The translations under genes and the position numbers were made by a program. The notes below the pieces were generated by a model, which did not search any database, was not told the DNA's origin, and worked only from the letters and a program-made list of their open reading frames with translations. From Apoderus coryli (Eukaryota; Arthropoda; Insecta; Coleoptera; Attelabidae): a stretch of 64,000 nt of DNA. Shown here in pieces: positions 486 through 35,843 of this stretch (the first letter of the stretch is position 1; the number at the start of each line of letters is the position of its first letter). The stretch covers positions 34,611,715 through 34,675,714 of the forward strand of contig OU452200.1 in the NCBI GenBank assembly GCA_911728435.2, written 5' to 3'.

Positions 486-524
486 GCCACTGATGATGGA
501 CATATAGTCCGAAACATGTCTGGC
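486..524 (+). ncRNA. Hammerhead ribozyme-like motif, copy 1
   Basis: Seen: GCCA (486-489) and TGGC (521-524) can pair as stem I. CTGATGA follows at 490-496, then one extra T, stem II GGAC/GTCC closed by a 5-nt loop, GAA at 511-513, a 2-bp stem III (AC/GT) capped by AT, and C at the cleavage position (GTC). This order matches a type I hammerhead with a minimal stem III, the form known from Penelope-like elements and retrozymes. The extra T between the core and stem II departs from the consensus. Downstream, TTTTTGTGGAG at about 558 is shared with the other copies. Self-cleavage is inferred, not shown. Confidence 0.7.
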
Positions 525-688
525 AACCTACACGAATTGTAACGTGTGTATAAAGATCTTTTTGTGGAGTAGACGCAGTTTTATTCAACATTTATATTAT
601 TAGTTGCCTCAATGAAATTTTCATTAATACTATTAGTACTATTACTAGTACTTGCTATTGCAGATGATATATTAGACGAATTGTTAGT

Positions 689-1594
689 TTAATTATTTAG
701 GGAATTATCCACATACTCTTTAGCTACGGCTGATGACTGCCATGCACCGTGTCTTTTCAAATCTAATAAGTCACCACCCGCGTCAATAAGAATAGTCGCG
801 GACGAGCGTCGAAAACAGTGTCCTGTATAAGTCGCTGCTTCTGGTAGTCCCAGATATATGACTGTTTGTTTTGGAATCTTTCCTAACTTGCCAACAGACT
901 GTTTGGTACATTTTTCGTTTATATAGTTTTTTGAAAAATGGTAAATTTGGAGCTGTATTTACTGCAGAGCGAAAGTTTATATATTTTTTTACCTTGGGGT
1001 AAAAATATTCTGATACCACAAAAGAACGTTGCCGTTTAGTTTTTGAATCGGGAATATTAATAATTAGATTATTTCCTGTGTCTTGAATATCTGACGGTTT
1101 TATATTACGCAACTCTTGTTTCCTGCATGCACCGCTTATACCAATTATAAGAGCAACCTAAAAGACGATTTGAAATAAATTTACACATCTAACATTATAT
1201 TGAGCCCAATATATTACCTTCATAAACAAATATTTATCATCTGGTGCGATTTCTAGAAAATCGTTTATATTTTTGCTTGTCAAAATCTTCAGGAGAGCTT
1301 GTAATTTGGAGTATTTTGCAATATCGACATTGTGATTTATATTAATTGTGGCCTTTAACATTGAGTAAAATGACCAAAGTGAGGAAGGCTTCATCGTTTT
1401 TGATAGTTCTTGGAAATATGCCATCATTACATTCTCGGAAAATGATTTAACGTCGTTTTTTAATCTCCATTTCATGAATCTTTGGTAAGTAAATTTGTAT
1501 CGATATTCAGATTTTGCCGGTAACAAGTTGTTTTTAGCAACTTCTGCAATTTCGCTAATGGAGTCAAATTTTCTATTTCACTGTCACTCGACAT
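689..1594 (-). pseudogene. Crypton-type tyrosine recombinase, copy 1 (frameshifted)
   Basis: Tyrosine recombinases cut and rejoin DNA through a 3'-phosphotyrosine; Crypton elements use one to move. Translated from 1594 leftward, the protein begins MSSDSEIENL, shifts frame by one, and continues through a core-binding domain (SSLWSFYSMLKATI). A likely intron follows (donor AAG|GTAATA, acceptor TTTTAG|GTTGC, about 75 nt near 1155-1230). The catalytic domain has arginine in GISGACRKQEL, HxxR as GHCFRRSSATIL, the HGAW motif, and the tyrosine in EYVDNS. The HxxR half lies in another frame than the arginine half, so the gene is broken. It matches the copies at 8005 and 15502 in order and motif. Family assignment is confident; mobility is unlikely. 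Confidence 0.8.
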
Positions 1595-1752
1595 TTTTTA
1601 TGTAATCAAACTAATTTCACTTTATAATATTACACTCACATACAAATTTGATTTAAGATTATGTCAGTTTTTGAATAAGTTTGTTTGTATTGACCGTTGC
1701 TAAGCGGTTGCTAGGAAAACTGTACGATTTTTTACCGTACGTAATAGGAATC

Positions 1753-2758
1753 TAAAGCGGCAGTTTCACGTAGCAGTCAATTGGCATAGCAGCGACTGTT
1801 AGGTAGGCGTGGTTATACTGCTAACTGTGAATCATACGATTGCGACCGCAGCTGAGTGTTGTGCCAGCTACTGCGATAACTAGAAATTTTTCTACTTTTT
1901 GTATCGCAGTCGCATACTCAACAAAAACAACATGGCGAAAAACATCAAACGCATTGCGTTTTCAGATAAACCGATTTTTACACTTATTGAATTGTATGAA
2001 GAAAATGAATGTTTATGCAACATTAAGTCATTGGATTATAAAAATAATAAAAAAATAAAAGCTGCACTGTTCAAAATTGCCAAAAATATGGGTTTACGTG
2101 AAGACCTAGTAAAAAAAACGGGTAAAATTTTGAAAATCCGCATTTACTACCATTTATTTAGTTAATAACTCCGTTAATAAATTATTTTCGAGGTTGAAAC
2201 GTGAATTATCTCACAACGCCGAAGATCTTTATTTTTAAATACTTTATTACATTACTAAATTAAAAATTACAATTGTAAGTTTTAAGAAATCCATGTTTTA
2301 CATTCAAATGCTTCTTACTGACTGCTACTTCTAAATGAAAAATGGTCTTAAGCAAAGTAATGATAAATAACTACTTAAACAATTTGCATTATCTTATGCA
2401 AGGTAAACAATATTTATAATATACATTTCATATGAAGACTTATTATATAATTCGTGGCCTATTTAATAATGCCAGTTTTACCCAGTACTTTTTTTTGCTA
2501 TAGGTTCTTTTTCGTTTTGAGACACATACATACGTGTGAGTTGTGTTTTGAGACTAGCCTTTTCTTCAATAACAAATAAAGTATTGCACAACCAACCAGT
2601 GTTTTTTTATTTCGCGCCATTTTAAAGAAATCTATTTATCAAATAGATGTTTATCTTGTCAAACAGGACGTCGCAGTAAATCATATCGCAGTTGCTTATT
2701 CCCCACTACAAAATTGAATCGCTGTAGCAGTCAACTGCTATGTGAAACTGCCGCTTTA
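1753..2758. mobile_element. PIF/Harbinger-like element with MADF ORF
   Basis: A 17-bp TIR, identical at the two ends (TAAAGCGGCAGTTTCAC at 1753-1769 and its reverse complement at 2742-2758), bounds 1,006 bp. Subterminal GCAGT/GCGAT motifs recur inside both ends. It encodes a MADF-like protein, the DNA-binding accessory type carried by PIF/Harbinger elements, but no DDE transposase is present, so it is probably an internally deleted derivative. TAA and TTA flank the two ends, compatible with but not proving a TWA target site. Confidence 0.65.
1932..2165 (+). CDS. MADF-like (Myb/SANT-like) domain protein
   Basis: 77 codons from an ATG in the context AACATGG. Almost the whole product is one MADF-like domain: FTLIELYEENECLCNIKSLD, then YKNNKKIKAALFKIAKNMGL, then a lysine-rich segment. 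The order fits the family pattern LI-x-L-Y, a central W or C position, D-Y-K-N, and A-x-x-x-I-A. MADF domains bind DNA; in PIF/Harbinger elements such a protein pairs with the transposase. The ORF ends soon after the domain, so the C-terminal half of a typical partner protein is missing or spliced elsewhere. It sits alone inside the 1753-2758 element. Domain call is good; function is inferred from the family. Confidence 0.65.
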   Translation: MAKNIKRIAFSDKPIFTLIELYEENECLCNIKSLDYKNNKKIKAALFKIAKNMGLREDLVKKTGKILKIRIYYHLFS

Positions 2759-3597
2759 CATTGATCGGAGACGGTGTGTTTTTAAGTATTTACAGTAGTG
2801 GTCGTAGGTAAAATACATTAAAAAACTTTTCATTTTCGATATTTTGTTCCTGCCCAAATTCAACACGATTTAAAATCAATATTGAAAAGTTCTTGATGCA
2901 GTGCACTGTGTTCGGTATCTTTCGTTAAACTGCCTTAACAGTCTCTCGAAGATCGCTTTTTTGGGATGATTTTGCGCCGGGAACCTTTGAGCGTAAACTT
3001 GCGAGGCCAGTAAAGCGTTTTTGGACCATTCTCCCAGAATAAAAATCATGTCTATACTTTCTCCTTTGTAATAGGTTTGCGTTTTTGATTAATTTAATTA
3101 AATCAAATGTCACAGATACAAAACTGTTTTGTGAAAAATTCCCAACTCTTAGGTAAGAGTTTTCAACAGACTATTTGACAGTAAATATCAAATTAAAAAA
3201 ATGTATTCTGTCTTCTCAAATTCTCATGGCTGACTTGACAAATATAAGTTTGAAAATTCTTCCTATTAATACCAATCTGTGTGCCTCTTCCATGCAAAAT
3301 TAAAGATATACATATCTATAGGAAAACTTTACTTTAACTTTAATTTTTGCATCAACAAATACAGGGTGATCTACATGAAACTAAGATATTCAATTAAAAA
3401 TTAGCCTGATATTATGAATATGTGCATTTCCCACGAAAACGTCAAGAGTTATCGATAGGAAAGTGTTATAATATTTGACAGATAATTACTTTGTGCATCT
3501 AATTTACCGGGTGTTCCATTTGAAATAAACAAGTTATTTAGAATTAAATTTTACATTCATATAACTTATATTACTGGAGAACAACACAAAGTTTAAA
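2759..3597. other. No gene; scattered element-end motifs
   Basis: Only isolated terminus-like strings are visible, ACAGGGTGATC near 3362 and CCGGGTGTTCC near 3509, typical of Tc1/mariner-type ends but without mates. The 62-codon minus-strand ORF at 2925-3113 matches nothing I recognise. Confidence 0.4.
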
Positions 3598-4076
3598 TTT
3601 ACAAAACATAGACGTCTACTCCACAAAATGTTTTATTTTGATGTTCGCTTAGTCAGGTTTTTATAAATTTATAAAAACATGACACACTCTACACCGAATT
3701 TGATTGAAATCAGAACTACATAAATATATTTTCAAAGATCTTTAATAGAAATGATTTACAAGAAAAAACATTTACATTAAATCTTTCACTATGAAATTTA
3801 CTGTTTGCAATTGGTGTAATTAATTTTTAAGTTTTTAAGTTTTCTAAATTTAAAAAATTTTATCATTTGACCTCAATTATTTTTTATACTACTGAATAGT
3901 TTTCACAAAATGTATTCATGTTTCGAAAATCTATGTATACGGCTTAGACACTAGGTAAGATTTTTGTAAAAGCTTATTAATGCCACTGATGATGGAACAG
4001 TGAGTTCCGAAACATGTTTGGCTAAGCGAACATCAATATAAAAAATTTTGTGGAGCAGACGTCTTTGTTTTGTAAA
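3598..4076. repeat. Inverted pair of hammerhead-family tails
   Basis: The left arm (3598-3655) is the reverse complement of 4022-4076: both carry the GACGTCT..CTCCACAAAA tail and GATGTTCGCTTAG. The right arm includes the hammerhead motif at 3982-4022; the left arm has lost it (AGTCAGGTTTTT replaces it). The layout is the same outward-facing arrangement seen at 5512-6690 and 35400-35870. Confidence 0.6.
3982..4022 (+). ncRNA. Hammerhead ribozyme-like motif, copy 2
   Basis: Stem I is GCCA (3982-3985) with TGGC (4019-4022). CTGATGA is at 3986-3992, followed by the extra T and stem II GGAAC/GTTCC with a 5-nt loop. GAA at 4009-4011 and a 2-bp stem III (AC AT GT) follow, and the cleavage position is T. 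Compared with copy 1, stem II has changed on both sides, which keeps the pairing. Confidence 0.65.
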
Positions 4077-5511
4077 TGCATCCCGCTCCTCGTCGTAATG
4101 GATTATTTCAGAAGATACAAAGTTTAAATTTTAAGGAAAAGATTTTCTAGACGCATTTCATATGGTATTATGTATGTGGTGGGACGTGTTTATAGTTATG
4201 CGGATTGATATCGCGACTGGTGGACAACAATGAACAAGAAAGATTAAGATTTTTGTTATGATTAGCACGAAATGAAATCGTCCTTATCTGCCTCTCCCAT
4301 GCGTCAATTTAAATGACGCTCTGTTAATTTAGCCGAAGTCCTCTGTTTAGGTAAATACAGTAATTTTGCCCAAAATGCTACCGAATATCTCTGCTTTAAA
4401 TAAAATTTAAATCAAATCTACGCGATATTAAATTTCACAGCATTTAGAGCCTTGAATTAAAATTGAAGGCACCGGAAATAAGGGCCTAGTTCATTATTCA
4501 AAATATTATATCAATAATTCTATAGGTAGTTGATAAATTGAAATAATGTAATTTCTATTTCAAAATTTGACTAAAATTCATTTGTTTCTTTTATGTAGAC
4601 TCTAATTTTGAGTTACAAAGAAAATAAAAATATTCAATGTTTTAAAAGTTCCTTGCTTAGAATAATTACCTGAGATTTTACTTTGTTTTTAATTTTTCAA
4701 CTCTTGGCTGGGGCTTATTTTGTTGTTGTTTGTGTCATTGTAAATTTTAAATGTTATACAATTCGTTTCTATCTGCCTGTTTATTGTGTAAGTTGTTTTA
4801 CTTTAAGTTTAGTATTATAACCTAAAGAAGGCAACCGAAACGTTGTTTTAATAAAAAAAATGGTTATTGACAATATATATCATGTAGTTATGTAATCCAT
4901 GTTTTGTTTGTGAGCCCCATCCCAAGAGTTTAAAGCGAAATTCGAAGAAATAAGGCTCAAGAAAAAAAATATTTGTATTTCATATCTTTAAATAAGATGT
5001 AGTCAGCTGTTAAATGTAAACTACCCCTACTGTTTTATCCACGAATTTGAATCACCAGTATTAAATAAGAACTTTGCAAATCTAGAACAGTAATAGAAAC
5101 AAAGAAATGTTGATAGATTTTAGTCATAAAGTTTGTTGTTCAAACACGACTTTACAAAACTCCGTACGCCAAATATTTTTGGACAACATAAAACTTTTTA
5201 TCTGCAAAATATTTTATTAGTACATTTTTGTGAAGCTGTATAGCGGTAAACCACTTTAGAACTTTTTATATTATTGTATGTACCTATACTGACTATTTCA
5301 GTTAGTACAAGTAGGTTAATGTTTCAAAATAAAGAAAATTTTAATCTATTTCCGGATTAGTTTTAGGAAACTGATTTTCCTGAACGCTTTGTTTGCAAAC
5401 CTATATCTTAAATTTTATAGGTAAGTGTTTTAGTTATACGGGGTGGCTAACCCAAATATTTCACGCAGGTTTATAACATTTACAAATAATTATAAATTAA
5501 TTAATTTGAAA
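4077..5511. other. No gene; one degenerate hammerhead-like string
   Basis: CTAAAGAAGGCAACCGAAAC at 4822-4841 resembles a decayed CTGATGA-stem-GAAAC unit (GG/CC stem) and is followed by an A-run. No other feature recognised. Confidence 0.35.
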
Positions 5512-5597
5512 AAATAGTCCATTCTTAAGTGGAGTTGCAATTTTAGTGTTTAAACGAAAGTCGAATCTCCACAAAATAAATTTAATAGAAACTATCG

Positions 5598-5640
5598 GCC
5601 ATACATGTTTCGGGACTAGAGCAGTCCCATCATCAGTGGC
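5598..5640 (-). ncRNA. Hammerhead ribozyme-like motif, copy 3
   Basis: Read on the minus strand: GCCA, CTGATGA, extra T, stem II GGGACT/AGTCCC, GAA, AC-AT-GT, A at the cleavage position, TGGC. All core bases and both stems I and II are intact. Confidence 0.7.
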
Positions 5641-6606
5641 ATGTCAACAATCGTACAAACACAACTATTTGTTTGTTTTGTTAAAGCCGGAATGGCAAGA
5701 ACGTCATCGACAAACGTAATAAAACGTTTTTTTGTTGGTATGAATATGAGTTGTGTTATAGGTGATAGTCTCCAGGCTCCAATTTACAATATGCTCTTAA
5801 AATTACAGACAAGTAAAGCTTTAGTAATAATTAACCAATCCAGCAATTTTCATATTGATAAATCCAACTAAGTCACGAAGGAGTATGATTAGTTCACTGT
5901 ATTATAAAAGGAACGGTGTAAGATTTTTCAATTATATTAATAGATGTGTGAAGTTAGGTTATCTTCGAGGCTCACAAATTTTTACTAATAATACGTGTTC
6001 AAATCCCAAGTCAACTACATACATACTGTTCCTTTTAGTAAAAATTTGTGAGCCTCGAAGATAATCTAACTTCAAACATCTATTAATATAATTGAAAAAT
6101 CTTACACCGTTCCTTTTATAATAGAGTGAACTAATCATACTCCTTAGTGACTTAGTTGGATTTATCAATATGAAAATTGCTCTAATTTTAAGAGCATATT
6201 GTAAATTGGAGCCTGGAGACTATCACCTATAAGATAACTCATATTCATACCAACAAAAAAAAAAAATATTACGTTTGTCGATGACGTTCTTGCAATTCTG
6301 GCTTTAACATGTCGATGACGTTCTTGCAATTCTGGCTTTAACAAAACAAACAAATAGTTAAATAGTCTTAAACTTTATTAGAAAACAAGAAAAATATGAT
6401 ATACAAAAAGAAAATTAGACCAAAATATGTAATTGTGATTTTAATTAAATTTTAATAATTCAAATATTTTTCCATAAAATGGTAAGATAAACGATAATTG
6501 CACATATTGATGAACGAACTAAGAATGAGGTGTGTTTTCTAGACTTCAATAGAAATTTAATGGAATATTGTATATCTTAGCGTTGTGTTTGTACGATTGT
6601 TGACAT

Positions 6607-6649
6607 GCCACTGATGATGGGACTGGTCTAGTCCCGAAACATGTATGGC
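6607..6649 (+). ncRNA. Hammerhead ribozyme-like motif, copy 4
   Basis: Mirror partner of copy 3: GCCA at 6607-6610, CTGATGA at 6611-6617, extra T, stem II GGGACT/AGTCCC with loop GGTCT, GAA at 6636-6638, ACATGT, A, and TGGC at 6646-6649. It differs from copy 3 only in the loop. Confidence 0.7.
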
Positions 6650-6839
6650 CAATAGTTTCTATTAAATTTGTTTTGTGGAGATTCGACTTTCATTTAAACA
6701 CTAAAATAAATGAATTAATTAGCTGTTGAACGCCACTTGGTTTATTAATTTCGGAGTAGCAGTTCTCGTGAAATTAAATTTTGAAAGTGAAGTTAGATTA
6801 AGAATGTGAGAAAACGATGAAGAATGGTTTTCGGTGCAA

Positions 6840-7305
6840 AAGCCACAGATTCTCATTCGCATTCAACGATGCCTTAGAAGAATTCTTGGGATTAAATGGC
6901 AGGACCACGAACAAACATCAACGTTCTAGAGGAAGCTGAATCAACTAGCTGCAATGGACTGGCCACGTAATCCGCATGCCAACGGAACACCTTCTAAAAA
7001 AAATCCTTTATTCAAAGCTTAAGGTCGGCTCACGAAATCAGGGAGGGTAGCAAAAGAGGTACAAGGATGTTCTTAAGACCAACAAGAAGAAGTGTCGCTT
7101 AGATGTGAAGAACAACTGGGAACAGATCGCGAACGACAGACTGAATGGAGGCGTACCATTTACGAGGGTCATCAAGTTTTTGAAGAGCAGCGTCGACGAC
7201 ATGAGTATGCGAAGAGACAGCATCGATGGGACAGCACGTAAATGGTGGTGATTCAGAGCTGTGGACTTAGTATCGGTCTATTTAGACAACTTAGGATTCA
7301 CAACA
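6840..7305 (+). pseudogene. Non-LTR retrotransposon ORF2 C-terminal fragment
   Basis: Translated with small frameshifts this reads RCLRRILGIKWQDH, then LQWTGHVIRMP, QKRYKDVLKTN, WEQIANDR, and CGLSIGLFRQLRIHNR. This is the usual C-terminal tail of a LINE family common in invertebrates, ending in a zinc-finger-like C..C..SRIGL..H..H segment. Only the tail survives; the reverse transcriptase is absent, as expected for 5' truncation. A second copy of the same tail lies at 34371-34660. The first cysteine of the finger is not recognisable here. Confidence 0.7.
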
Positions 7306-8350: not shown

Positions 8351-8405
8351 CAATATTAGCAATTGCTCGAATTTTAATATAAATATTAACATAAATAAGA
8401 ATTAA

Positions 8406-8738
8406 AATGTTGCTGCTAATATGTAGTATTTTCTGTTCTGTTCTGTTAAATTCCAATAAGAATTAAAATGTAAGTATAATAAAGAAATGTGTCGTCTCAT
8501 TGATTTATTATTCTACACGGTTGCCGAAAAAATATTGTACGCAACACGCCCGAAAATAGTTTTTTTGGACTCACAGCCTTCCAGGACTCGCCTACGGTTC
8601 GTTCTAGAATTTTGTCTATTCGTCCAAAAAAACCTATTTTCCGGACTTGCTACGTATATTACTATTATGACCAAAGCAAACAACAACGTCACCTCCACAA
8701 CACGTTTCTCTATTATTTAAGCCTCAAAAGCTATAATA
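8406..8738. other. No gene; hairpin near 8550-8640
   Basis: AAATAGTTTTTTTGGAC near 8555 has an inverted mate GTCCAAAAAAACCTATTT near 8620. Probably a small foldback element; otherwise nothing seen. Confidence 0.4.
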
Positions 8739-13250: not shown

Positions 13251-15501
13251 AAAGTCTACCGTAGTCATTATTTGCTTCTTGGGTGCTATTGACCTTTAAA
13301 TACATGTGAATTTTGACCGGGTTTATATGTAAGTAAAATCCGAGGTTCATTACTAATTGTAGATTTGGAATTGGGATGAATTACTTTAGACATATTTTAT
13401 AAACGTTTTGAATTTTCTCATATTAAGCAATACGCATTTTTATGCGATATTTTACACGTTTTCTTAGCTGTAATTTTCGTATTATTATAAAATACTAAAA
13501 AAACGTCATTTTAACGTTTTCATTGTCGCGTCTAAAAATTATGCGCTTCTAATGAACATTTTCTAACGTTATTTTAGCTATAAATATCGGTTTATTATAA
13601 ATTACATAAAGACGGTTTTATAAACGTTTTTAATTTTGACATTGTTTGACACGCGTTTAAAAAACACCTAAAACAAACGTTTTTATGTTATGGTTTATTT
13701 ATAATACATATATGTACAAACTTAAACATAATAAATGCACGTAGTTGTATTTAAATAAGAAAAACACGTGTCTATAACGTTTAAACTGAACGTTGTAAAA
13801 TTAGCCTTAAAATATACCATCAATTTTCTAACGTAAGACCAATTATCAACGACTGACACGTTGAATCAACGTTTACTTTACGTATATGTGTTTAGTGGGT
13901 TCATAAGTAATCACAAAAACATAATTTTGTTTTTATGATAATGAAATATAAATTGCTCTTAAAATTTGAATTATCGACATATAAAAATGTTTCAAAGTTT
14001 GCAAAGTACCTTACCCTATAGTAAGCATTTACAATAAGCAAATCCGAGGATCAGTCATAAGTTTTCTCAAAAAAATCAAGAGATAAAAATCATATTCTGA
14101 AGTCAAATCGGATTTCATCGTTACAAATACTTACGTACATAACCCTGCAAAACCAAATGAAAATAGCAGTTTTCTTAGGGTTTTAATTCATTAAAATATT
14201 TCCAGAAAGCCAATGACCGTCAACTTAATATAGAGGAAAAACAAAAGATTTAAAAAGTCACCAACACGGATTCGAACGTCCACTCTTCTCGTCTTTATTT
14301 ATACATATTTCCAAAAAGAAAAATGTGGATGAATAAATACAGGCGCTAATGTCTATTTATAAATAAATTATTATGTTCGTAAAATGACTATTATAACAAA
14401 ACTTTAATGAGTTTATTTTCAATGATCCGCAACTAAGTTCTTTAAAGCTATTCACATTGACGCCCAATTGCATTTTATTACCTTCTAACATGTAATGAAA
14501 TAGACCATTACACTCATATTTTAGCGGCAAACCAAATTTAATTAACAACATTTTTGCATGAACATTATTTTCTACTGGTTTATATCATTCTGTATTCTGT
14601 ACATTAATTTCTGAATTAACGGGGCCAAGTCTTGTTATAACGTCAGCGATGCATTTGGCTTAATGTCGAAAAAAACGCAAGCGTTGATACTGTTCAGGCG
14701 TTAATGAAAATCGAGATTTATTACAAATTAAAGTGTAGAAAAATGAATGTAAACCTGTAATCATTATAACCTCGCAGAATAAATCTGCATAAAATTATTC
14801 AAAATATATTTTATATGTAGCTAGGTATGTAAAAACGTAAAAAACCACCGACAATGTAGAACTAATTTATGAGTATTTTAATAATTGCTTTTTGCATTTG
14901 CATCTGGGCTAAATAATTTGTTACAGCAGTAAATTATATTTTTTTGTATATAAATATTTTTGAAGTAGTTTCGTGTTTACTTCAAATAATAATAATAAAT
15001 CGTCTTTATTTAAACACAAATAACATAATCAGACGAGCCTGAGGCTATTCTTACTTAACCTGATAAAAAATATGTTATCTAAATATCATTAAGATATTAC
15101 AAATCCAAAAATAAAACCAAAAAACACTTCCGGACGCATCTCTCATAACAACTAAAAGCTTCAAAGCTTGGAGACCCTTGTTCTACAGGATGTAAGTTGT
15201 TTGTTATATTAGCAAAAAAAGTAATTAAAAGCATTAAAAATTTCTTTTTCTGCCGACACTATGAGAAAATTGAATTTTACTGCTTCCATAGGGACGAGAA
15301 AGTATGCATTTCTAAGGCTAGCGCTACAAAACACTTAAAAATGGTAGACAAGAAAATTATTTTTAACTATTTGTAATAGATGGCGGCACAATAATAAAAG
15401 CTATTAACAATGATGACATACCAATGTGACAGTGGTTGTCAAAAATCGAGCGCGTTGTAAAATATTCAATTTGAATTTGATTCATCATTTATATAATAAT
15501 C
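13251..15501. other. No gene; AACGTTT-rich tract
   Basis: Between about 13400 and 13890 the strings ACGTTTT, AACGTT and ACGTTTA recur many times. A tRNA-type B-box-like string (GTTCGAATCC, minus strand) lies at about 14264-14273, perhaps the trace of a SINE. The rest shows nothing. Confidence 0.4.
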
Positions 15502-16563
15502 ATGGAATATCTGATTGATCATAGTGACGAGGAAATTGTGTATTGTACCCCGCCTGAAATTCACGAGAAAGCTAAAGAAGTTTCGATGAATTTGCTGCCG
15601 GAAAAATCAAGAACCAAATATGAACTTCAGTATAAACTGTTTATGGATTGGTGTAGTGTTAAAAACGTTAAAAAGTATAGTGAAAGCGTGATTTTGACGT
15701 ATTTATCGGATCTTTCACAAAAATACCAATCTTCAGTACTGTGGTCAATTAATTCCATGTTAAAATCTACGCTATTAGTTAAAAATAACGTAAAGATTAG
15801 AAATTTCACATAAGTGACTGCCTTTTTAAAGAAGAAATCTGCTAAAAAGTCAAAAATTTTCGACCAACGGTATATTGAAAAATTCTTTGAAACTGCTCCA
15901 GATGAAATACATTTAATGACAAAGGGAAGCAATCATATAATGAATCAAAAACTATAATTTTACTCTTTAAAAATATAATTTTAAGTAGTGTTGATTGTAG
16001 GAGTGGCCGGTGCTTGTAGAAGTATTGAACTCACAAATATGATAATAGATCATGCGGTTAATAAAGACGATATCTTAATAATTCACCTTTCAGACACAAA
16101 AACTCTTAAGCGGCGAACTGTATGCAACACGGAACAAAAAGAAAATACTACTGACGTATCAATATGCAAAAAGTATTTTAGTCTACGTCCCAAAAATATG
16201 AATTCTCGACGATTATTTGTGAAATACAGTGCTGGAAAATGTTCAGCCCAAAATGTAGGACATCATACAATTGGTTCAATTCCTTCTAAGATAGCGTTTT
16301 ATTTAAACCTATCAAATTTCAAAGAATATACTGGCCATGCGTTAAGAAAGACATCTGCCACACTTCTTGCCGATTCAGGAGCTGATATATTGTCACTGAA
16401 AAGGCACGGTGCATGGAAATCAGCTACCGTAGCAGAAGGCTACGTGGAAGACTCAATAAATAACAAAATTAGAGTAGCTAAAAAAATGTTGGTTTGCAAT
16501 CATCGACCTACATCAAAAACACCCTCGAACTACGTTTGCCTGCTTCGACCACAATATAGCTAG
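15502..16563 (+). pseudogene. Crypton-type tyrosine recombinase, copy 3 (best preserved)
   Basis: From ATG at 15502 one frame covers the gene. The N-terminal region is MEYLIDHSDEEIVYCTPPEI, then the core-binding domain with LLPEKSRTKYELQYKLFMDW and SSVLWSINSMLKSTL. After one stop (15811) it continues VTAFLKKKSAKKSK..FETAPDEIHLMTK. A probable intron follows: AAG|GGAAGC looks like a mutated donor, and an acceptor lies near 15985. The catalytic domain then has R in GVAGACRSIEL, HxxR in GHALRKTSATLLADSG, HGAW, and the nucleophile Y in EGYVEDS. Defects are one stop and the weak donor. About 330 residues fits this insect family. All recognisable catalytic residues are intact. Codons 163 onward (15988-16563) form an open 192-codon block. 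Confidence 0.85.
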
Positions 16564-17074: not shown

Positions 17075-17219
17075 AAGTAGTCCATCTTTAAGTGGAGTGC
17101 GATATTCGATATGGGGAAATAAAAGTCAATCTCCGCAAAATAAGTTTAATAAATCCCTCTAAGGGTCTTCATTCGTCACCATAAATGTTTCGAGGCACCC
17201 GGCCTCAATATCAGTGGTG
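17075..17219 (-). mobile_element. Hammerhead-family tail with conserved 3' end
   Basis: On the minus strand a degenerate hammerhead-like motif (17177-17219) is followed by TTTTGCGGAGATTGACTTTT and ends in CACTTAAAGATGGACTACTT at 17075. Stem I is CACCA/TGGTG (5 bp, different from the GCCA/TGGC of other copies), and stem II is GAGGC/GCCTC. The core is damaged: CTGATAT instead of CTGATGA, and ACATTT instead of ACATGT. This tail defines the family's 3' terminus. Confidence 0.6.
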
Positions 17220-17424
17220 GGTTTATCGAAAAGCTAGTTGGTCAATTGGACATACACGAGAAAAAAAAACACAACGTCTGAAAGCAAGACACGCCAATGC
17301 ATTACTCGATATTATAAGATACTACACCATACTGAACTCACCATTTCATAAAAATTATGTAAACACCAAAAACAAAACTAAGTCATATTTGATACAATTG
17401 ATGCGGAAAATTGATACTACTTAA

Positions 17425-22509: not shown

Positions 22510-23350
22510 TAATACTTAATTAAAACCTTGTACCACTTAATGTAGCACGCCAGGGTAAGTGGAAATATCTGTTAAATGTCACAACCTTCAATTTAGTGTT
22601 ACCACCGACCTACAGTAAAGGTATGAGGAAATCGTTTACTTTTTCAATTTTCCGTCGAGCATTTAAAACATAATATCTGTAAAAACGCAGATATTTTTAA
22701 AATTTTATTTTATAATATTTCGCCAGACTTGCATACCTTAGTAAAATAAAAGTTTATGATGCAAAAGATACCTACGTGTTCAGTATTATGTTCCCAAAAT
22801 GTTGTCCAAAATATTTACCATAATTGTTACATATTTAAATTTTATGACGCTGCACGATATTATGCTTGTATCCGCAACTGGTTTTTATTTCATGTAATAT
22901 TGTTCTAATTTACATGTAAATGGTCAGGCAGAGCGAGCATTATTTGACTGAAAAATTGAATTCATGAACATAATAAGTAGCCTACAGTTAAATGATACAT
23001 AAAAAATGGAGAAATTTTTAAATATACTTCATGCATGAGCCACAGGGAATAATGTGCAAAAGATTTAACGTTAAAGTATTATTAACATAACATTAATTTA
23101 CTAAATATAAGATAATTTAGTAGGTTTGTCATGTCAATTATTAATGTATTCAGATTTGAAAAGTGGTTCGTCACCTGCGGCTTGGAAAATTAACGGTTTT
23201 TTACACTACATCATTTCATCGCATCTGGTAGGTACACACTAAAAACTGAAGATATTTTTTATTTCATTTTTTATGTTTTTTATCGTATTCACTATAAAAA
23301 AACACCAGAAATTTATTATTAATGGAATAAAACTCCGTCACATCCCCCAA
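22510..23350. other. No gene seen
   Basis: AT-rich, no repeat or coding feature recognised. Confidence 0.4.
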
Positions 23351-23556
23351 ATTGTTTAATTAAAATTATAGACATATTTCGACCTTAGCTAAGGTCATCA
23401 CCAATTTTAAATAATGTTCATAATTTTGTTGTGTGTTCCTTTCCACTAAGTTATACTGATGATGACCTTAGCTAAGGTCGAAACATGTCTATAATTTTAA
23501 TTAAACAATTTGGTGTATTCCAAGAAATTGGTCATCCACAGAGAGATGGACTACTT
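23351..23556. repeat. Inverted hammerhead pair with conserved 3' end
   Basis: 23351-23400 and 23461-23511 are near-perfect inverted arms that include AATTGTTTAATTAAAATTAT. Each arm carries a hammerhead-like motif: the right one (23449-23496) is intact, and the left one (23365-23408, minus) has GTGATGA and GAAATATG. The right tail ends GAGATGGACTACTT at 23556, the same 3' end as at 17075 (minus). Confidence 0.7.
23449..23496 (+). ncRNA. Hammerhead ribozyme-like motif, copy 5
   Basis: Stem I is AGTTATA (23449-23455) with TATAATT (23490-23496), seven pairs including one G-T, a completely different sequence from the other copies. CTGATGA is at 23456-23462, then the extra T, an eight-base palindrome GACCTTAG/CTAAGGTC as stem II, GAA at 23480-23482, AC-AT-GT as stem III, and C at the cleavage position. 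Core and all stems are intact. Stem I has changed on both strands, which supports a structured RNA. Confidence 0.75.
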
Positions 23557-23735
23557 CATCAAACTTATTATTAATGTTTATCAACGTTGACCAGAAATTG
23601 CAGGACCGGTGTATCACTATTGAAGTGTCCAAATCGTTTTGGACTTTTGAAAATCTATAGGGAAAAAATTCACATTAAAGGAAAATGCTCGTCACTGGTT
23701 ATTTAAAATTTACGCATCAGTGACAAGCCAAGAAC

Positions 23736-27789: not shown

Positions 27790-29265
27790 CCACGAAAACG
27801 CAGAAACCGCTTAACAGATTTTAACCAAATTTGGTACAAAAATACTATTGGACATGGCAAGGAGCTGATTAGATTTTGGGAAACATTGAGCGTAGGCAAA
27901 GGGTTTAAAAGAGGGTTCAAAAATTAAAAAAATTCATAGTTCTTAAACTTATCCGAAATACTGCATAATTTTTTACGCATTTAATTGAATATAACCTAAA
28001 ATATTGAACAAAAAATATTAGACCACATTGGCGTTCGAAAATAGTGTAAAATGGGGTAAAAAAGATTAAAAAAAAAACGTATTTCTTAAAAATAGCAGAA
28101 ATATTAACTAGTTATTTATAGTTTTGATAGAATATAACCTATAAAATGTGTCATGAATAACTTACTTTCATAGGCGTTCGTAAATAGTGGAAAAGGGGTC
28201 AAAACATAAAAAATATATATTTCCTAAACTTATTCGAAATATGGAATAATTTTTCATAGTTGTGATAGAATATAACCTAAAAAATGTTACATAAAAGAAT
28301 TGGTTCACACAGGCGTTCGAAAATAGTCTAAAAAAAGGGTCAAAAACGAAAAAAAAAACGTTTCTCAAATATACTAGAAAAATTGGCTAATTATATATAG
28401 CTTTGATATAAGATAACCTAAAAAATGCACAATAAAATTTTTATTTACATAGGCGTTCGTAAATAGTAGAAAAAAGGCTAAAATAAAAAAAATTAAATTG
28501 TAAAAATTTTTATATTTAACTAGATGAATTCGTGTTCAAAATACACGACAAAAATTAATGTACCATAGGTGTCCGTGAAAATTCTATAAAAGGGTCAGAA
28601 AAAATTTATATCCGTGATAACTCAAAAACCACTTAACGGATTTTAACCACATTTGGTACGAAAATACTACAGGATATTTATAGGTGGTGATTAACATTGA
28701 GCGTAGGCAAGGGGTTTAAAAGAGGGTTCAAAAATTTTAAAAATCATAGTTCTTAAACTTATCCGAAATATTGAATAATTTTTTATAGTTGTGATAGAAT
28801 ATAACCTAAAAAATGTTACATAAAAGAATTAGTTCACACAGGCGTTCGAAAATAGTCTTAAAAAAGGGCCAAAAACGAAAAAAAAAAATGTTTCCCAAAT
28901 ATACCAGAAAAATTGGCTAATTATATATAGCTTTGATAGAAGATTACCTAAAAAATGCAGCATAAAATTTTTAGTTACATAGACGTTCGTAAATAGTAAA
29001 AAAAAGGGGTAAAATAAAAAAAAAATAAAATGTAAAAAATTTTATATTTAACTAGTTGAATTGGTGTTAAAAATACACGACAAAAATTAATGTTCCATAG
29101 GCGTCCGAGAAAATTTTATAAAAGGGTCAGAAAAAATTTGTATCCGTGATAACTCAACCACTTAACGGATAACCTACAACATGCAGCATAACAATTTTGT
29201 TTACATAGGCGTTCGTAAATAGTAGAAAAGGGGGCAAAATAAATTTTATAATAAAACTAAAAAAA
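27790..29265. repeat. Complex tandem array, ~140-bp monomers
   Basis: The landmark GGCGTTCGTAAATAGT (variants GGCGTTCGAAAATAGT, GGTGTCCGTGAAAA) recurs near 28029, 28173, 28313, 28451, 28567, 28840, 28979, 29099 and 29205, mostly about 140 bp apart. A higher-order repeat is visible: 28290-28610 matches 28822-29150 closely, about 527 bp apart. Also GAGCGTAGGCAAAGGG with its following text at 27887 recurs at 28699. Single monomers are dispersed at about 30724 and 45050. Confidence 0.85.
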
Positions 29266-30252
29266 AATCAATTATTTTGCGTACAAGAACTTGGCCTAGA
29301 TCTCAAATATAAGATATCTGCGTATAAATAGTGCCTCCAAAGAGAAGAAAAAGGCACAAAACCAGATACTTAAAAAAAAATAGCTGATGTCTAAAACAAA
29401 ACAAAAATTTATTAAATTTAGATAAATGACAAAAAGGTCATAAAATTATTACTTTTACACTTAAATATGGGGAGCTATTCGTGCCTCGAGGGCAACAGTT
29501 TATTATTTTTTGCTTTTGGTTTATCCGGGAGTAACAGTTTCTTAAGAAATCTTGACGGCATTTGCGTTGAACTAACTTGAAATATTTCGCGAGACCAAAT
29601 TTGATAAGGGTTGATATGAAACTGCACCAAAACAAGTCGCATAGAGTCATTATTTTGCCACTATATTGTTTTAGTGAGGTTGATAACCCTTGTATCCAAA
29701 AAATATCTTAAATAACAGAATGAGATAGGGAAAAGTATAAGTTATTTATTTTGACTATGATGAAAATGTTTTACAATAAATTTTCCAAACTTAACTGAAT
29801 GAAATATTATTATACAAATAACCTATTTAGCATATACGAGAGAAAATTTATTTATTACATTATGTTATACATTCAAATTCCCTGCCTGTTGCTTCATAAT
29901 GTCTATAATTTTATAATACAGATTAATTTTAACATGTTGACATCAAATCCATATTTATTTATAAAACAGGATAAAATTAGTTAATATATATGTGTTTACA
30001 AATTTTATGACATGTTAATGAGATTTGGAATATATTGTGGCATTTGTTGGTAAGAAGCAGATCCAAGAATTCAGGATTAAAAAGATTTAAACTGTTTTTC
30101 ATGAAAAAAAGTTTGTTATATAACTAACCGTTATTCAAGTTACAGAAGTGAAAATATTTAAACAGCGATTCCAAACCAATAAACATACTTTGCCTTGTTT
30201 ACTTTCCCGACCTATAGGGAATTGCATTGAAAAAATTAAGATAAACACGGAT
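29266..30252. other. No gene seen
   Basis: AT-rich; the short ORFs at 29438-29650 and 29799-29984 look like chance. Confidence 0.4.
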
Positions 30253-30600
30253 TTAACCATTGTGAAGTCCTTTGAGACGATTAAGACCATTTCCAGATGG
30301 AAGTCTATCTATCTGTGTGTTTGTATGTAATTTTCCATGGTAACGTCTAAACTGTTCAACCAATTGAGACAAATTTTGGTATATTAGTTTGGGGGAGTCC
30401 ACGGATGAACCCATTAGTTTTTGGTTGAAATCGCTGTAGCCCTGTGATAGAGGTGGACACAACCGCCAAATTTTCAAATAGCAGTACGGATACAACATAT
30501 TAAAGCATTTTTTATCTGCTTTACAGCGATAGGTTATTTTTGATATTTTCCCCCATGTATCTCGAGAAAATTGCCCCTAAAATTTCACCAGTTAGGTAGC
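30253..30600 (+). repeat. Microsatellite-associated dispersed repeat, copy 1
   Basis: Order of landmarks: CCATTTCCAGATGGAAGTCT, a TCTATCTGTGTG tract, CAACCAATTGAG, TTTTGGTATATTAG, TTTGGGGGAGTCC, GGTTGAAATCGCTG, GTGGACACAACC, CTTTACAGCGATAGG. The same order is found at 44590-44890 (plus), 43617-43925 (minus) and, partly, 36245-36310 (minus). No coding capacity. Confidence 0.8.
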
Positions 30601-31109
30601 TGGGACTCTTATTTAGAATATGATAAAGTAATTTGAATTCTTAAACATACCAGAAATATCGACTAGTAATAAGCTGTATTAGAATATAACCTATGAAATG
30701 TATCATAGAAAACTTGCTTACATAGGCGTTCGTAAATAGTGGAAAAGAGGTTCAAGAGTCAAGCTACATTTTCAAAAAATCAACCCAATATGTTAAATAA
30801 ATAAAAAATAAATGCTTTATTAACAGATAAACCCCCCTTTAAAGGACAATTACATTACATTACATTGAAATTACATCACAAATATGTATACTCGTATACA
30901 ACACAAAAAAAAAGAGGAAACTATAGACCAAATTAAATTCTACTATTCTGTTAAATAATAAGAAAACAATATACGAAGACAACTGTTATTGTTCAACAAA
31001 TTCACCAAAAACTAATTTTATTCTAAAAAAATTATCAAAAAATATATCGCAACAGTGACATATCTTATTAAAGTTACTGGTCATTAGATAAATAGGTGAT
31101 CTTAAGAGA
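30601..31109. other. No gene; one tandem-array monomer near 30724
   Basis: Contains a single GGCGTTCGTAAATAGTGG monomer like those of the 27.8-29.3 kb array. Nothing else recognised. Confidence 0.4.
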
Positions 31110-31960
31110 GTGATGGTCCTAGCACGCGTAGATTTAAATTTAATTTCGAAATTAAAATGGACTAAGTATCTATATTGCCATGAAGAAAGTTACATAAGAA
31201 AGGCAGGGACGACACATGACGACAGTGTTCCACACTCTGCATCGAAAAACGTGACAAAAGCAGACTCTGATCATATCCCCGAACGGGGTAAATACCATCC
31301 TGCCTCCAAACCAGATACTTTCTTAGGAATTTCCTTTGGACCCCTTCCACTGCCTGCTTATGAACCGACTAAAATTGACTCCAAATTATGGACCCATACT
31401 CCATAGTAAGTGTATTTATGTCCGTGAATCCCTTACCGTTCCGAACCAAAAATCCGTACATGCGACTGGCCTCCTCAACTTTACCACGAATGTGATTAAC
31501 AAACGTAAGCTGTGAATCGAACACAACACCAAGGTCTCCAACGAAGATAGCGGAACACCTTTGATCTAATAAGAAAACCCAGTATTGTCCCTTTTTCTCG
31601 AATATGAATATGAATTTGGTATGTCCAATGCAAGATTATTCCTCCTCACACCAGTAACTCAACTTGGCAATATCACTTTGCAATGCATAACAATCTGCTA
31701 AATAATTTATTAAGTGAAAAATGTTAAAGTCGTCAGCAAATAAAAAACAGCTTGTCCCAACGCAACGGCGGAAATTAGAGCCCTGCGGAACCCCGGAAAG
31801 AGGTATTAGATTTATGTCCATTAAAATATACAAATTAACACCTGTCCAATAGGATAAAATAAGTAAAATTAGATCTTTTGAAAACACAGACTGGTTTAAC
31901 TTTTGAATCAACACACCATGATCGATTCTGTCGAACGCCTTTAAGAATCTGTGTATATAA
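31110..31960 (-). pseudogene. Jockey-like LINE reverse transcriptase fragment
   Basis: Read on the minus strand with frameshifts: KAFDRIDHGVLIQKL (motif A region), SGVPQGSN (motif B), LFADDFNIFHLINYL (motif C, ADD intact), LSYWCEEE, then a segment like VFDSQLTFVNHI and VQRKFLRKYLVWRQDGIYPV with LLLSRFSMQSVEHCRHVSS. The last block aligns with VQRRFAKFLWFRSNGVYPV in the LINE at 61.2 kb, so the two are related. Several frameshifts and a damaged stretch after PQGS make it inactive. Confidence 0.75.
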
Positions 31961-32262
31961 CATCAATATGACCACAAAGTCGATTAATTATTAACCCAAT
32001 ACTTTTTCCAGTCACTGTAGTTATTTTTATTACTGTCGGTATCCTTTGGCAGGCATGATTTATTATACGTCTTATATACGAGGGAGAAATTTACCAAAAA
32101 ACGCTGCATTCGATGCCCTTTTATAATGTAAAGAGGCATGGGAACGGATAGCCCCGGTAGAATCGTGAAATTTATATATTTGAAATTAACTTTGGATAAA
32201 CTATACAACTTTTGCTTGTTTCCAAAACACAGGGTATATTTGCGAACTTAAAATTAAATTAA
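31961..32262. other. No gene seen
   Basis: Nothing recognised beyond spurious short ORFs. Confidence 0.35.
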
Positions 32263-32307
32263 GATTGTATTGGTGCCTGTACGGAGCGTACAGGCACCAA
32301 TACAATC
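32263..32307. repeat. Perfect 21-bp hairpin with 3-nt loop
   Basis: GATTGTATTGGTGCCTGTACG (32263-32283), loop GAG, then the exact reverse complement (32287-32307). The arm is more GC-rich than its surroundings. It is followed by an ATGATGATCATGATG tract. It could be a recent foldback insertion or a structured RNA stem. Confidence 0.9.
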
Positions 32308-34370
32308 CTGAACGATGATGATCATGATGATGGTACTAAGTCTGGTCCAGCTGTTAGCCCATCATTAACCTTCCCGTTACTGTTACAGGATCCAAGAAGG
32401 GATATGTTACAGGGTTCAAGAGAACATGGATGTTATACTTAGAGTAAATTTTGACCGTGTGTGTAAAGCAACAGCCATAAAGCAAATGCGGCCAAAATGT
32501 ATGTATTTATTTACGTCTACTTACTAACAAAATCGAAAATCCTATTTTTCTCACGACGATGTAGTCAGAAAGTTTCATGTAACTGCATGCATTTCCAATG
32601 TCCATTCATTTCAATTACATTGAAAAGATAGAACGTTATCCCAATTGCCTTCAATATCCGAATTTTATTGTCTTTAATTTAAACAATACGACAAAAAACA
32701 AATAAAATCCTTAAGCGAAAAATACAATTTGCCCCGATTTTTCCATTTGTAATATACCTACAACTGCTACGACCATGCTTAGAACTGAAAACGGAAAATT
32801 TATCGGTCATCTTCATGGGTTTGTTTTCAAGTAGAAAATGTATATTGTAGGTTAGATGAGCCATGAAATTAATATTAAAATTTTCCACTTAGTTGGCGAT
32901 TTAACTAGAGGCATGTTTCAAATTTATATTGATGTGGGGTACGATAAAGATTTTTTTTTATATAATGTCATGATTTGTTTAGGCAATTTAGAATCTGATA
33001 TTCCGAGAAAATAAGAATGTAACTTTTTCGTGTATACAGGATTTTAAGTCGAAACTGCCTTATACATTTTGGCCAAAGTAGATAGTTAGGGGCAATATTA
33101 AATTTAACAGTAAATATATCTGGTAACATAAAAATCATGTTGGATACAGTAATGTGATGTTGTAATTCTGTGTAAGTTACAATACCGATTAAAATGTTAG
33201 CTAATAAAATAAAGTAATTTGTTTGGACTCTTTGGCGGTGGTAAGAATGGCGGGATTCCTATAGGGATAGTAACTGGTTCTATTTTTGGGTAGTGAGCAG
33301 CCTCCTTTTTATGAAACTAGTACTGATAAGTATGCACAATTGTATAGTCGAAATTTTTTGAAAGTTACAACACCGGATAAACTGTTTGTTAACAAAAATA
33401 AAGTGGTATAAGCTGCGGCATAGTGTTTGTCGTATACCTAACTCAGCGGTGGAAGTTTCTTTTGTACGAGAGTTTGTATATAAATTGAAGAATTATTATT
33501 ATTAACAGGTTGACTGCCACGAAAATATTTTAAAGACTGTGTTTTTTTTTTAATTTTGCGTATTTTTTTTGGCAAATGACTTGTATTTAATAAGAGTTTT
33601 CGCTTTTATTTAATAATAATGAATAGTTTTTTAGGCAAAGTCTGATATTTTAAAAGAAGAACCATGATCTGTTCAATAGTTTTTCTTAGATTAATAAATT
33701 GAAGGAAGATCTATCAAATTACATAATAATTTTTAATAAAACCTCAAGTGGATGAAACTTTTTGCAGTGACTGTATCAGACGATCAGAATATACGACACG
33801 AGCGGAACACGTTGGGTGTTTAAGCTCAAGATTTACATGTGCAAAGCCATCGTCTTCTTTTAAATATTTATCATCAGTTAAGGTCTGAAAATAATGAAGT
33901 GACGAATACACATATTATAAAATTTCCACGTTCTATAGAAAATGTCACTGACGAAGTGAGTAAAATTTGTTGTTAGTTTATAATATCAGAAGCATATTAT
34001 TATAAATGTATCTACTTATATGCATAACAAGTATTAACAATAGTATTAATTATAATAAAGGTATGTTCCTTGCTGTTCGAACACGGACTAGGTCTAAACT
34101 TCTAAAAACAAAAACAGTCTTTTTCAGTGTAGGTTTATATGTTGCCGTGTTGGAGCGGCAAGGAAAAATACAGTATACTTTTATACAAATGAACATACAA
34201 TTGTTAATACATAAAGGATTTTTAAAACATCGTAGGGCATGTATTGTTATGAAAAGTTAAAAAGGTGCGCCTATGGACGGCTGCGGTCGGTCTTGACATC
34301 ACAAAGAGATATCGTGTTGTGGTTTTTTATATCATTTTAAACTAACTTTAGAAACACTATACAAGACTGT
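32308..34370. other. No gene; two copies of a dispersed repeat
   Basis: 33160-33240 and 33325-33405 are diverged copies of the 25250 repeat (GTAAGTTACAATACCG..AAAATGTTAGCTAATAAAAT; AAGTTACAACACCGG..). No coding feature recognised. Confidence 0.4.
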
Positions 34371-34660
34371 TCTTAAGACCAACATGAATAAGTGTGGCTT
34401 AGATGCGGACTAACTAGAAGCGAGTGACCGACCAAGATAGAGGTGTGCCCTTTACGACGGTCATCAAGTTTTTGAAGAGCAGCGTCGACGACATGACGAT
34501 GCAAAGAGACAGCATCGAAAGAAGATAGAGCGCATCGATGGGGCAGCGCACCTACAACAGCCGGTAAATCGTGGTGATTGGGTGTGTCAATTTTGTGACA
34601 AGGTTTGCGGCTCGAGAATCGGTCTGTTTAGCGAGATCAACACATGCGTTATCGATGCGA
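34371..34660 (+). pseudogene. LINE C-terminal tail with zinc finger, second copy
   Basis: Matches 7055-7300 closely (ACTGTTCTTAAGACCAACATG; TCATCAAGTTTTTGAAGAGC; AGCGTCGACGACATGA). Its end reads GDWVCQFCDKVCGSRIGLFS then EINTC, a clearer version of the C-x2-C..SRIGLxSHxxxH finger typical of the end of this LINE's ORF2. Only the tail is present, with frameshifts. The 121-codon ORF at 34571-34936 is in another frame. Confidence 0.7.
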
Positions 34661-35399
34661 ATAAAAACGCACGTACGTAGTATATCGATGGGTATTTTGT
34701 ATTGGTCGCAAATACTACCGCTGATGTTACAAAAAAAGAAAAATGGAGAAATTCCGAAGAGCAACATTTGTAGAATGACCGCACTTATTGCAATGACTGT
34801 GTGGGAGAGAGTCCGATTGTTTAAATTGTTTTTATACTTGCAATTATACGAAAAAATTTTCTTAGCAAAAATTTTTGTCGGAACTTTTTTTATATTCCTG
34901 GCTACCAGGGTATTTCCAAAAATATACTCATCGTAATCTTAATTTATATAATGTATATTCCTCTCTCCCAACGCCGGCCGCGTTCCATAAATAATCAAAG
35001 TAATCTCTTGGTTTTTCCTAGCTTTTTCGAGGGTGACATCCACTTCACTGATCCTTTCCGACAATATTTTGGCCCACTTTTCAGTCCTTTATGTATTTAG
35101 CCGTATCTGATGCTTAACTTTGTGATTACATTAATGATTTTTGTTGTGCGGCATCAATAAATTTATACAGGATGTTTCTTAATCTGTGAAACCCGCCTTT
35201 CAGAAGGTGATAAGACTTTAAACATTTTATAGGGTGATGAAAATATCATAAAAATTAAATTTTTTAATATTTGAAGATGATGTAGTCATACGAAATTTTA
35301 AAACTTAATATTTCCTTACTAGTTGTGATATTTAATAAAAATAAGTAGCACAGATAATGGGGCACACTATCATTTTTTAGATAAAAGTTCATTAATAAT
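34661..35399. other. No gene seen
   Basis: One isolated end-like motif, TACAGGATGTTTCTTAATCTG near 35166, resembles a Tc1-type terminus without a mate. Confidence 0.35.
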
Positions 35400-35426
35400 A
35401 GAACAATCGGCTAATGAAATTTCTCA

Positions 35427-35469
35427 GCCATACATGTTTCGGAACTAGACCAGTCCCTTCATCAGTGGC
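35427..35469 (-). ncRNA. Hammerhead ribozyme-like motif, copy 6
   Basis: Minus strand: GCCA, CTGATGA, extra A (T in other copies), stem II GGGACT/AGTTCC (one G-T pair), GAA, ACATGT, A, TGGC. Core intact. Confidence 0.65.
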
Positions 35470-35796
35470 AAAAACTTATTTGAGATAACAAATAATACAT
35501 GTTTTTAGTTATATTAAATTGGAAATCATATTATCATTCTGAATTTTAATAATTTTGTTAAAAAATAGTAACGTTTTTTCACCAAATCAGTCATCGTGCT
35601 ACAATGTACACAGTTAAAATGATAGTCTAATTATTAAATTTCAGATATATGTATAGGTAAAAAGAAAAATACACTTTTCTAATATGATTTCTAATTTAAA
35701 ATAACTAAAAACATGTTCTTCCATAAGATGACTTCGGAGGAATTTTCAACCGATGTATTAGTTATCTCAAGTAAGTTTTTCTGATTGTTGATTTTT

Positions 35797-35843
35797 GCCA
35801 CTGATGATGGGACTGGTCTAGTTGCGAAACATGTAGGTTTGGC
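35797..35843 (+). ncRNA. Hammerhead ribozyme-like motif, copy 7 (degenerate)
   Basis: GCCA, CTGATGA, extra T, then stem II GGGACT against AGTTGC with one mismatch, GAA, ACATGT, A. Four extra bases precede TGGC, so stem I needs a bulge. Probably inactive. Confidence 0.5.

What the first reader, a model, noticed from the sequence alone, without database searches (positions are those of the whole stretch)
486..35843. Family of hammerhead-like motifs with compensatory stem changes
At 486, 3982, 5598(-), 6607, 23449 and 35427(-) the same order is present: stem I, CTGATGA, one extra nucleotide, stem II, GAA, ACATGT, H, stem I partner. Stem II differs among copies (GGAC/GTCC, GGAAC/GTTCC, GGGACT/AGTCCC, GACCTTAG/CTAAGGTC), yet both sides change together. 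Stem I is GCCA/TGGC or AGTTATA/TATAATT. The minimal stem III is the palindrome ACATGT, so two molecules could share a 6-bp stem III, as proposed for Penelope and newt-type hammerheads. The extra base (usually T) before stem II is unlike the textbook core and constant across the family.
Basis: partly seen in the sequence, partly recalled or inferred. Interest (0 to 1): 0.9.

Follow-up and report, generated by a model that had tools for sequence, protein, structure and literature searches.

The report
Hammerhead ribozymes in Penelope-like retroelement repeats
The repeated motifs are small hammerhead-type (self-cleaving) RNA motifs carried in the terminal repeats of a Penelope-like retrotransposon family, a known kind of association, and they carry one extra core base that is usual for such elements in this genome.

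Summary
Stems I and II change together: 8 of 9 pairs have two-sided changes and 98% of cells pair, against 16-43% for slid partners. They are minimal type I hammerheads of a Penelope-like element (PLE): window 3-592 is 92% identical to the terminal repeat of a full-length element in the same genome, whose two repeats flank a 901-aa RT/GIY-YIG-like ORF and hold the same 30-nt core as copy 490. One spacing of the motif occurs 1073 times in 428 Mb, its reversed control 0 times. The extra base is not special to this family: 13 of 13 hammerheads found beside GIY-YIG genes have one. Copies form outward-facing inverted pairs with target-site duplications, a layout already published for PLEs. A search for insertions beginning at the ribozyme cut site was negative, and my idea that the extra base marks a short stem III met a counterexample family. 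Cleavage was not tested. A good confirmation of a known kind, with modest novelty.

The parts
3..592 (+). Copy of a PLE terminal repeat (pLTR) containing ribozyme copy 490
   Evidence: 92.3% identity over 598 columns to L046 46-632 and again to 3625-4211
486..524 (+). Hammerhead copy 490: stem I GCCA/TGGC, extra T, stem II GGAC/GTCC; 30-nt core identical to that of full-length element L046
3586..4131 (.). Inverted pair (element 3601-4116) between 15-bp target-site duplications at 3586-3600 and 4117-4131; left arm 3597-3655 begins at the predicted cut site, right arm carries ribozyme and tail
3982..4022 (+). Hammerhead copy 3986: stem I GCCA/TGGC, extra T, stem II GGAAC/GTTCC
5540..6707 (.). 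Inverted pair holding copies 5636- and 6611+, facing outward; only a 9-bp direct repeat at the ends (not above chance)
5598..5640 (-). Hammerhead copy 5636-: stem I GCCA/TGGC, extra T, stem II GGGACTG/TAGTCCC
6607..6649 (+). Hammerhead copy 6611: stem I GCCA/TGGC, extra T, stem II GGGACTG/TAGTCCC
17172..17220 (-). Damaged copy 17214-: CTGATAT in place of CTGATGA, stems CACCA/TGGTG and GAGGC/GCCTC kept
   Evidence: E 2.3e-12; this copy is in the model
23313..23576 (.). Small inverted pair (element 23325-23564) between 12-bp target-site duplications at 23313-23324 and 23565-23576
23361..23410 (-). Damaged copy 23405- in the left arm
   Evidence: E 6.3e-5; not in the model
23449..23496 (+).
35427..35469 (-). 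Hammerhead copy 35465-: stem I GCCA/TGGC, extra A, stem II GGGACTG/TAGTTCC
35797..35843 (+). Damaged copy 35801+, inverted partner of 35465-, both stems broken
   Evidence: E 3.6e-9; not in the model

Best explanation
The motifs are minimal type I hammerhead ribozymes in the terminal repeats of a Penelope-like retroelement family. In a full-length element of this genome the ribozyme lies upstream of the single RT/GIY-YIG-like ORF and again downstream in the second repeat. Stem III (ACATGT) is one pair with a CAUG loop on its own, or a 6-bp duplex when two ribozymes pair, so the active form is most likely a dimer, between two RNAs or between the two repeats of one RNA; the cut would fall after H17, before the 3' strand of stem I. 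The window copies are truncated insertions, several of them arms of head-to-head inverted dimers. Shown here: motif, covariation, linkage to a full-length element, copy number, inverted pairing, target-site duplications. Inferred: catalysis, dimerisation and the role in the life cycle.
For: Core and stems at seven window sites and none in 200 shuffles; covariation, 8 of 9 pairs with two-sided changes, and 85% against 64% pairing in 35 distinct genomic sequences; 1073 genomic matches at one spacing and 0 for the reversed pattern; window 3-592 is 92% identical to the repeat of L046, which has the same 30-nt ribozyme core at 530 and 4109 around a 901-aa ORF with RVT_1 that aligns with ORFs found by GIY-YIG; its 13 database relatives carry PF26215, 12 of 13 RVT_1 and 1 GIY-YIG; 13 hammerheads in 12 of 30 GIY-YIG loci; an outside relative in a contig of a bacterial MAG, with different but paired stems.
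Against: No cleavage data. Pfam did not report GIY-YIG in the L046 ORF or its last 131 residues; that domain rests on alignment to other ORFs. Rfam hammerhead models do not recognise these copies above threshold. The predicted lowest-energy fold of single copies is a longer hairpin in which AUG of the core pairs with CAU of ACATGT, not the hammerhead. Truncations do not mark the cut site. Only copy 490 aligns over its length with L046; 3986 matches it over 59 nt and the others not at E 1e-3, so they are related families.
Confidence: 0.93

Rival explanations
1. The hammerhead-shaped RNA belongs to PLEs but is kept mainly as a structured signal, for example for protein binding or for placing the start of reverse transcription, and self-cleavage is weak or dispensable.
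For: In the anole PLE, ribozyme mutants did not affect insertion in vitro, cleavage needed the protein, and no reads began or ended at the cut site (PMC11167929, section read). Truncations here do not pile up at the cut site. A single copy is predicted to prefer a different hairpin.
Against: Most core positions needed for catalysis (CUGANGA, GAA, A-U, H17) are kept, with H17 never G in 59 motifs with both stems, although those motifs were chosen partly by the core; the anole ribozyme does cut in the presence of protein.
Confidence: 0.3
2. The motif is a plain long hairpin, or a DNA-level signal, and its likeness to a hammerhead is superficial.
For: The minimum-energy fold of each tested window copy pairs AUG with CAU and joins stems I and II in one hairpin.
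Against: In the ACGT-type relatives beside GIY-YIG genes (CTGAGGA or CTGAAGA with ACGT) that AUG/CAU pairing cannot form, while the hammerhead core and stems remain (by inspection).
Confidence: 0.04
3. The copies are animal retrozymes or satellite repeats with type I hammerheads.
For: Retrozymes are the other animal home of type I hammerheads (PMC7229834, passages).
Against: Copies are dispersed inverted pairs with target-site duplications, not short tandem repeats, and copy 490 lies in a PLE repeat.
Confidence: 0.03

Closest known systems
Minimal type I hammerheads of Penelope-like retroelements (Cervera and De la Pena 2014; Lunse, Weinberg and Breaker 2017; only titles seen, and reviews of them, passages)
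   Same: Minimal stem III, location in pLTRs, thousands of dispersed copies, proposed dimer action
   Different: Whether their consensus contains the extra base could not be checked: neither paper is held
Anole Poseidon element PAc (PMC11167929; main text section read)
   Same: Ribozyme next to the ORF start, pLTRs, tail between two RT start sites
   Different: In PAc the ORF starts at stem II; here the L046 ORF starts 92 nt after the 30-nt core
Bdelloid rotifer Penelope elements (PMC3846280, passages)
   Same: Head-to-head inverted pLTRs, optional tail on one of them, short target-site duplications, palindromes at the junction
   Different: Duplications there are 8-10 bp; 12 bp or more in 6 of 9 dimers here. 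The passages do not mention hammerheads (0 occurrences)
Newt and axolotl type I hammerheads (PMC7229834, passages)
   Same: Stem III of one pair capped by a palindromic tetraloop, active mainly as dimers
   Different: Those lie in 330-350 bp tandem repeats and keep loop 1-loop 2 contacts

Membership tests
Type I hammerhead ribozyme | Core CUGANGA ... GAA ... A-U, H17 | tested here: met
   Six intact copies
Type I hammerhead ribozyme | Stems I and II supported by covariation | tested here: met
Type I hammerhead ribozyme | No base between A9 and stem II (textbook core) | tested here: not met
   One extra base in six of six intact copies; insertions of one or two nucleotides there are described as known (PMC10085705, passage), so this is a variant, not an exclusion
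Type I hammerhead ribozyme | Self-cleavage after H17 | not testable with these tools
   Needs RNA
PLE-associated minimal hammerhead | Diminished, palindromic stem III | tested here: met
   ACATGT in six of six intact copies
PLE-associated minimal hammerhead | Location in the pLTR of an element with RT and GIY-YIG ORF | tested here: met
   Copy 490 and L046; for the other window copies only by shared layout and tail
PLE-associated minimal hammerhead | GIY-YIG domain by family model in the linked ORF | tested here: inconclusive
   Not reported by Pfam in L046; aligned at 30-31% to ORFs found by that model
PLE-associated minimal hammerhead | Cleavage as a dimer | not testable with these tools
   Needs RNA
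Animal retrozyme | Short tandem repeats with a type I hammerhead | tested here: not met
   No tandem array at these copies; inverted pairs instead

The most novel reading that the evidence does not exclude
The head-to-head inverted dimers that carry two outward-facing ribozymes are the footprint of two-ended target priming: the element's protein cuts both strands and each DNA end primes reverse transcription on its own RNA, one from each of the two start sites that define the tail, after which the two cDNAs are joined. This would explain why the ribozymes always face outward, why one arm has the tail and the other not, and the single target-site duplication around the pair. The published alternative is self-priming on an antisense template (PMC3846280). 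Against: five of nine dimers read are palindromic through the centre, which independent truncation does not predict.
Probability: 0.3. Interest if true: 0.5.

Novelty: new member of a known kind. Interest (0 to 1): 0.35.

Why it matters
It ties a ribozyme family that Rfam models miss to a retroelement with at least a thousand motif copies in one genome, with natural stem variants for testing how minimal hammerheads act. Reviews call the role of these ribozymes in PLEs unknown (PMC7761336, passage); the genome offers two tests. One, done here on a sample, says that insertions do not usually start at the cut site. The other, the layout of inverted dimers, bears on how PLEs insert.

Tried and rejected
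Rfam: nothing at gathering score; at E up to 10 no hammerhead match to these copies in the whole window, none for copy 6611 alone, 11.1 bits for copy 23456 alone.

Link of copy 490 to the tyrosine-recombinase-like ORFs at 783-1577 (minus): dropped, because the copy lies in a PLE repeat.

Scans of viral contigs with five patterns gave 0, 1, 3, 0 and 1 loci (L002-L006); L006 lies in phage-like ORFs and the others look like coding DNA by eye, so I treat all five as chance. The scan of prokaryote genomes gave one locus, L001, taken as a eukaryotic piece in a bacterial MAG; that it is termite DNA is my guess from the record title.

Footprint of cleavage: if cut RNA were a common template, insertions should begin at the cut site. 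Of 87 distinct tail copies read from the 100 listed places (975 in the genome), 58 keep the ribozyme by a loose test. Of the other 29, by eye, 11 hold a diverged or other-family ribozyme, 2 an internal deletion, 4 are one tandem array, and 12 are truncated at scattered points, the nearest 8-15 nt before the cut; none exactly at it. One window arm (3597-3655) does begin there. Result: negative, on a small sample.

Extra base as a mark of a short stem III: in 59 unique motifs with both stems, 57 have one extra base (54 with stem III of at most 6 nt, 3 with 8 nt) and 2 have none (8 and 10 nt) (one search gave 55 and 2 of 57 before four more loci). L036 and L099 (ACGCGCAT, ACGCGCGT with an extra T) are a counterexample family, so I do not claim the correlation. 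The pool is enriched for ACATGT by my own patterns.

41947 as a retrozyme: suggested by a 498-nt direct repeat, then doubted because its 8 close genomic pairs all face outward.

Full report
Check of the observation. The six sites were read directly and scanned by script. A strict description (CTGANGA, 0-2 extra bases, stem II of at least 4 bp, GAA, A...T, H, stem I of at least 3 bp) gives seven sites in 64 kb and none in 200 dinucleotide shuffles. A covariance model built from six window copies and one outside relative finds nine copies in the window at E 6.3e-5 or lower, the next match being at 0.58; three of the nine were not in the model.

Covariation. On ten rows 93% of cells pair (19-46% when partners are slid) and 8 of 9 pairs show changes on both sides. 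On seven less redundant rows 98% pair, against 16-43% when slid. Related rows inflate such counts; the independent lineages are about six, the outside one included. A test not chosen for stems: of the 1073 genomic matches to CTGATGA-N14-GAAACATGT, 100 are listed, with 35 distinct middles; with one extra base 85% of stem II cells pair, with none 49%, with two 40%; shuffled 3' halves average 64%, maximum 76% in 2000 shuffles. The extra base there is T in 98, A in 1 and G in 1 of 100.

What it belongs to. The motif at that one spacing occurs 517 + 556 times in the 428-Mb assembly and the reversed pattern 0 times. Four listed places near C1:22.6 Mb (two minus, two plus, about 3.58 kb apart within each strand) outline two elements head to head. 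The right one (L046) has a ribozyme at 530, an open frame of 901 aa at 652-3357 starting MDYFRKF, and a ribozyme at 4109; the left one (L045) has a 921-aa frame on the minus strand. The L046 ORF has an RVT_1 match (E 5.4e-8). Pfam did not report GIY-YIG in it, but it aligns at 31% over 450 aa and 30% over 231 aa with ORFs found by GIY-YIG. Its 13 database relatives all carry PF26215, 12 RVT_1 and one GIY-YIG. No solved structure matched. Window 3-592 is 92% identical to its repeat, and copy 490 has the same 30-nt core. The other window copies are related families: of them only 3986 matches L046, over 59 nt. They share the layout, six of nine TTTTGTGGA boxes of the window lie beside ribozyme copies or their inverted arms (by eye), and four (3986+, 5636-, 17214-, 23456+) run into ATGGAYTAYTT-like tails that resemble the ORF start of L046 (by eye).

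Arrangement. Close neighbours mostly face outward: 11 of 11 ribozyme pairs under 2 kb and 12 of 14 under 5 kb among 100 listed places; 19 of 19 GIY-YIG pairs under 10 kb among 150 listed matches; 17 of 20 tail-box pairs under 2.5 kb, the other three being one tandem array, and 19 of 30 under 5 kb, where 3.6-kb tandem units enter. The lists are the first or best places, not random samples. Of nine dimers cut out, six have direct repeats of 12 bp or more near the ends, two 10 bp and one 8 bp, and in seven of nine, by eye, one arm carries the tail and the other not. In the window the dimers at 23325-23564 and 3601-4116 lie between 12-bp and 15-bp duplications; 12 or more shared letters occur in 6 of 1985 random pairs of stretches; the other two window dimers show 9 bp and none. 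Head-to-head pLTRs with an optional tail are already described in rotifer PLEs, with self-priming on an antisense template as the explanation (PMC3846280, passages). The anole protein cuts and extends both strands and starts reverse transcription at two internal sites that bound the tail (PMC11167929, section read), which suggests two-ended priming instead. In five of nine dimers one inverted alignment spans both arms through the centre, in four it does not, so the data do not decide. My literature searches for this reading listed no paper that states it in title or abstract; few of the papers were opened.

The extra base. Thirty loci were chosen by GIY-YIG alone. Twelve of the 30 hold 13 hammerheads within about 1.5 kb, nine on the strand of the endonuclease match and four on the other, and all 13 have one extra base, 10 A and 3 T. 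So the extra base is common in PLE hammerheads here. Over all loci and the window, 57 of 59 unique motifs with both stems have one. Exceptions are the window's 41947 and a family with ACGGCCGT (L056, L142-L145), which is the family that Rfam's type I model finds in this genome (4 matches; 73 of 52198 candidates scored). [quoted passage not shown]

How it most likely works. Transcripts of the element would fold at the repeat into a weak hammerhead whose stem III is only ACAUGU, so that two ribozymes pair there and each cuts after H17; in tandem copies (four tail boxes 3.57-3.60 kb apart near C1:18.97 Mb) this would release unit-length RNA. A single copy is predicted to prefer a hairpin that hides the core, in line with the need for a partner or, as in the anole element, for protein. 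Insertion does not seem to use cut RNA often. Cutting, dimerisation and the role in the life cycle are inferred.

Known or new. The kind is known: PLEs with minimal hammerheads, dimer action, inverted pLTRs (reviews and papers above; the two founding papers were not available). New here are the particular family, its numbers, the duplications around the inverted pairs, and the negative footprint test.

Noticed in passing
window 41938-41990 (+): A hammerhead with a canonical core and no extra base (GGTACT/AGTATC, CTGACGA, GCTCAT/ATGAGC, stem III ACGAATTCGT). Rfam HH9 gives 20.2 bits, below its threshold. The surrounding 181 bp has 48 listed genomic matches, 40 of them near full length at 93-100% identity; its 8 close pairs all face outward.
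   Followed up: partly
window 4824-4850 (+): CTAAAGA-A-GG..CC-GAA-ACGT: by eye a decayed hammerhead of the ACGT type seen beside GIY-YIG genes.
   Followed up: no
L056:954-997 (-) and 1268-1311 (+); L142-L145: A second hammerhead family without extra base (stem III ACGGCCGT), just below or above Rfam's type I threshold, in L056 and L142 within inverted repeats.
   Followed up: partly
L125:251-1177 (G000:C1:28931677-28932603): Four tail boxes spaced 303 bp with no ribozyme upstream: a small tandem array that contains a PLE-like tail box.
   Followed up: no
G000:C1:18966175-18976953 and C1:26403086-26418612: Tail boxes about 3.6 kb apart, four minus in the first and three minus then two plus in the second: apparent tandem arrays of long PLE copies, the second head to head.
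   Followed up: no
window 660-1577 (-) and 15481-16563 (+): Two tyrosine-recombinase-like ORF pairs with weak Phage_integrase matches, Crypton-like by recall.
   Followed up: no
window 27882-30766 and 45034-45080: Array of repeats of about 141 bp containing GGCGTTCGTAAATAGT.
   Followed up: no
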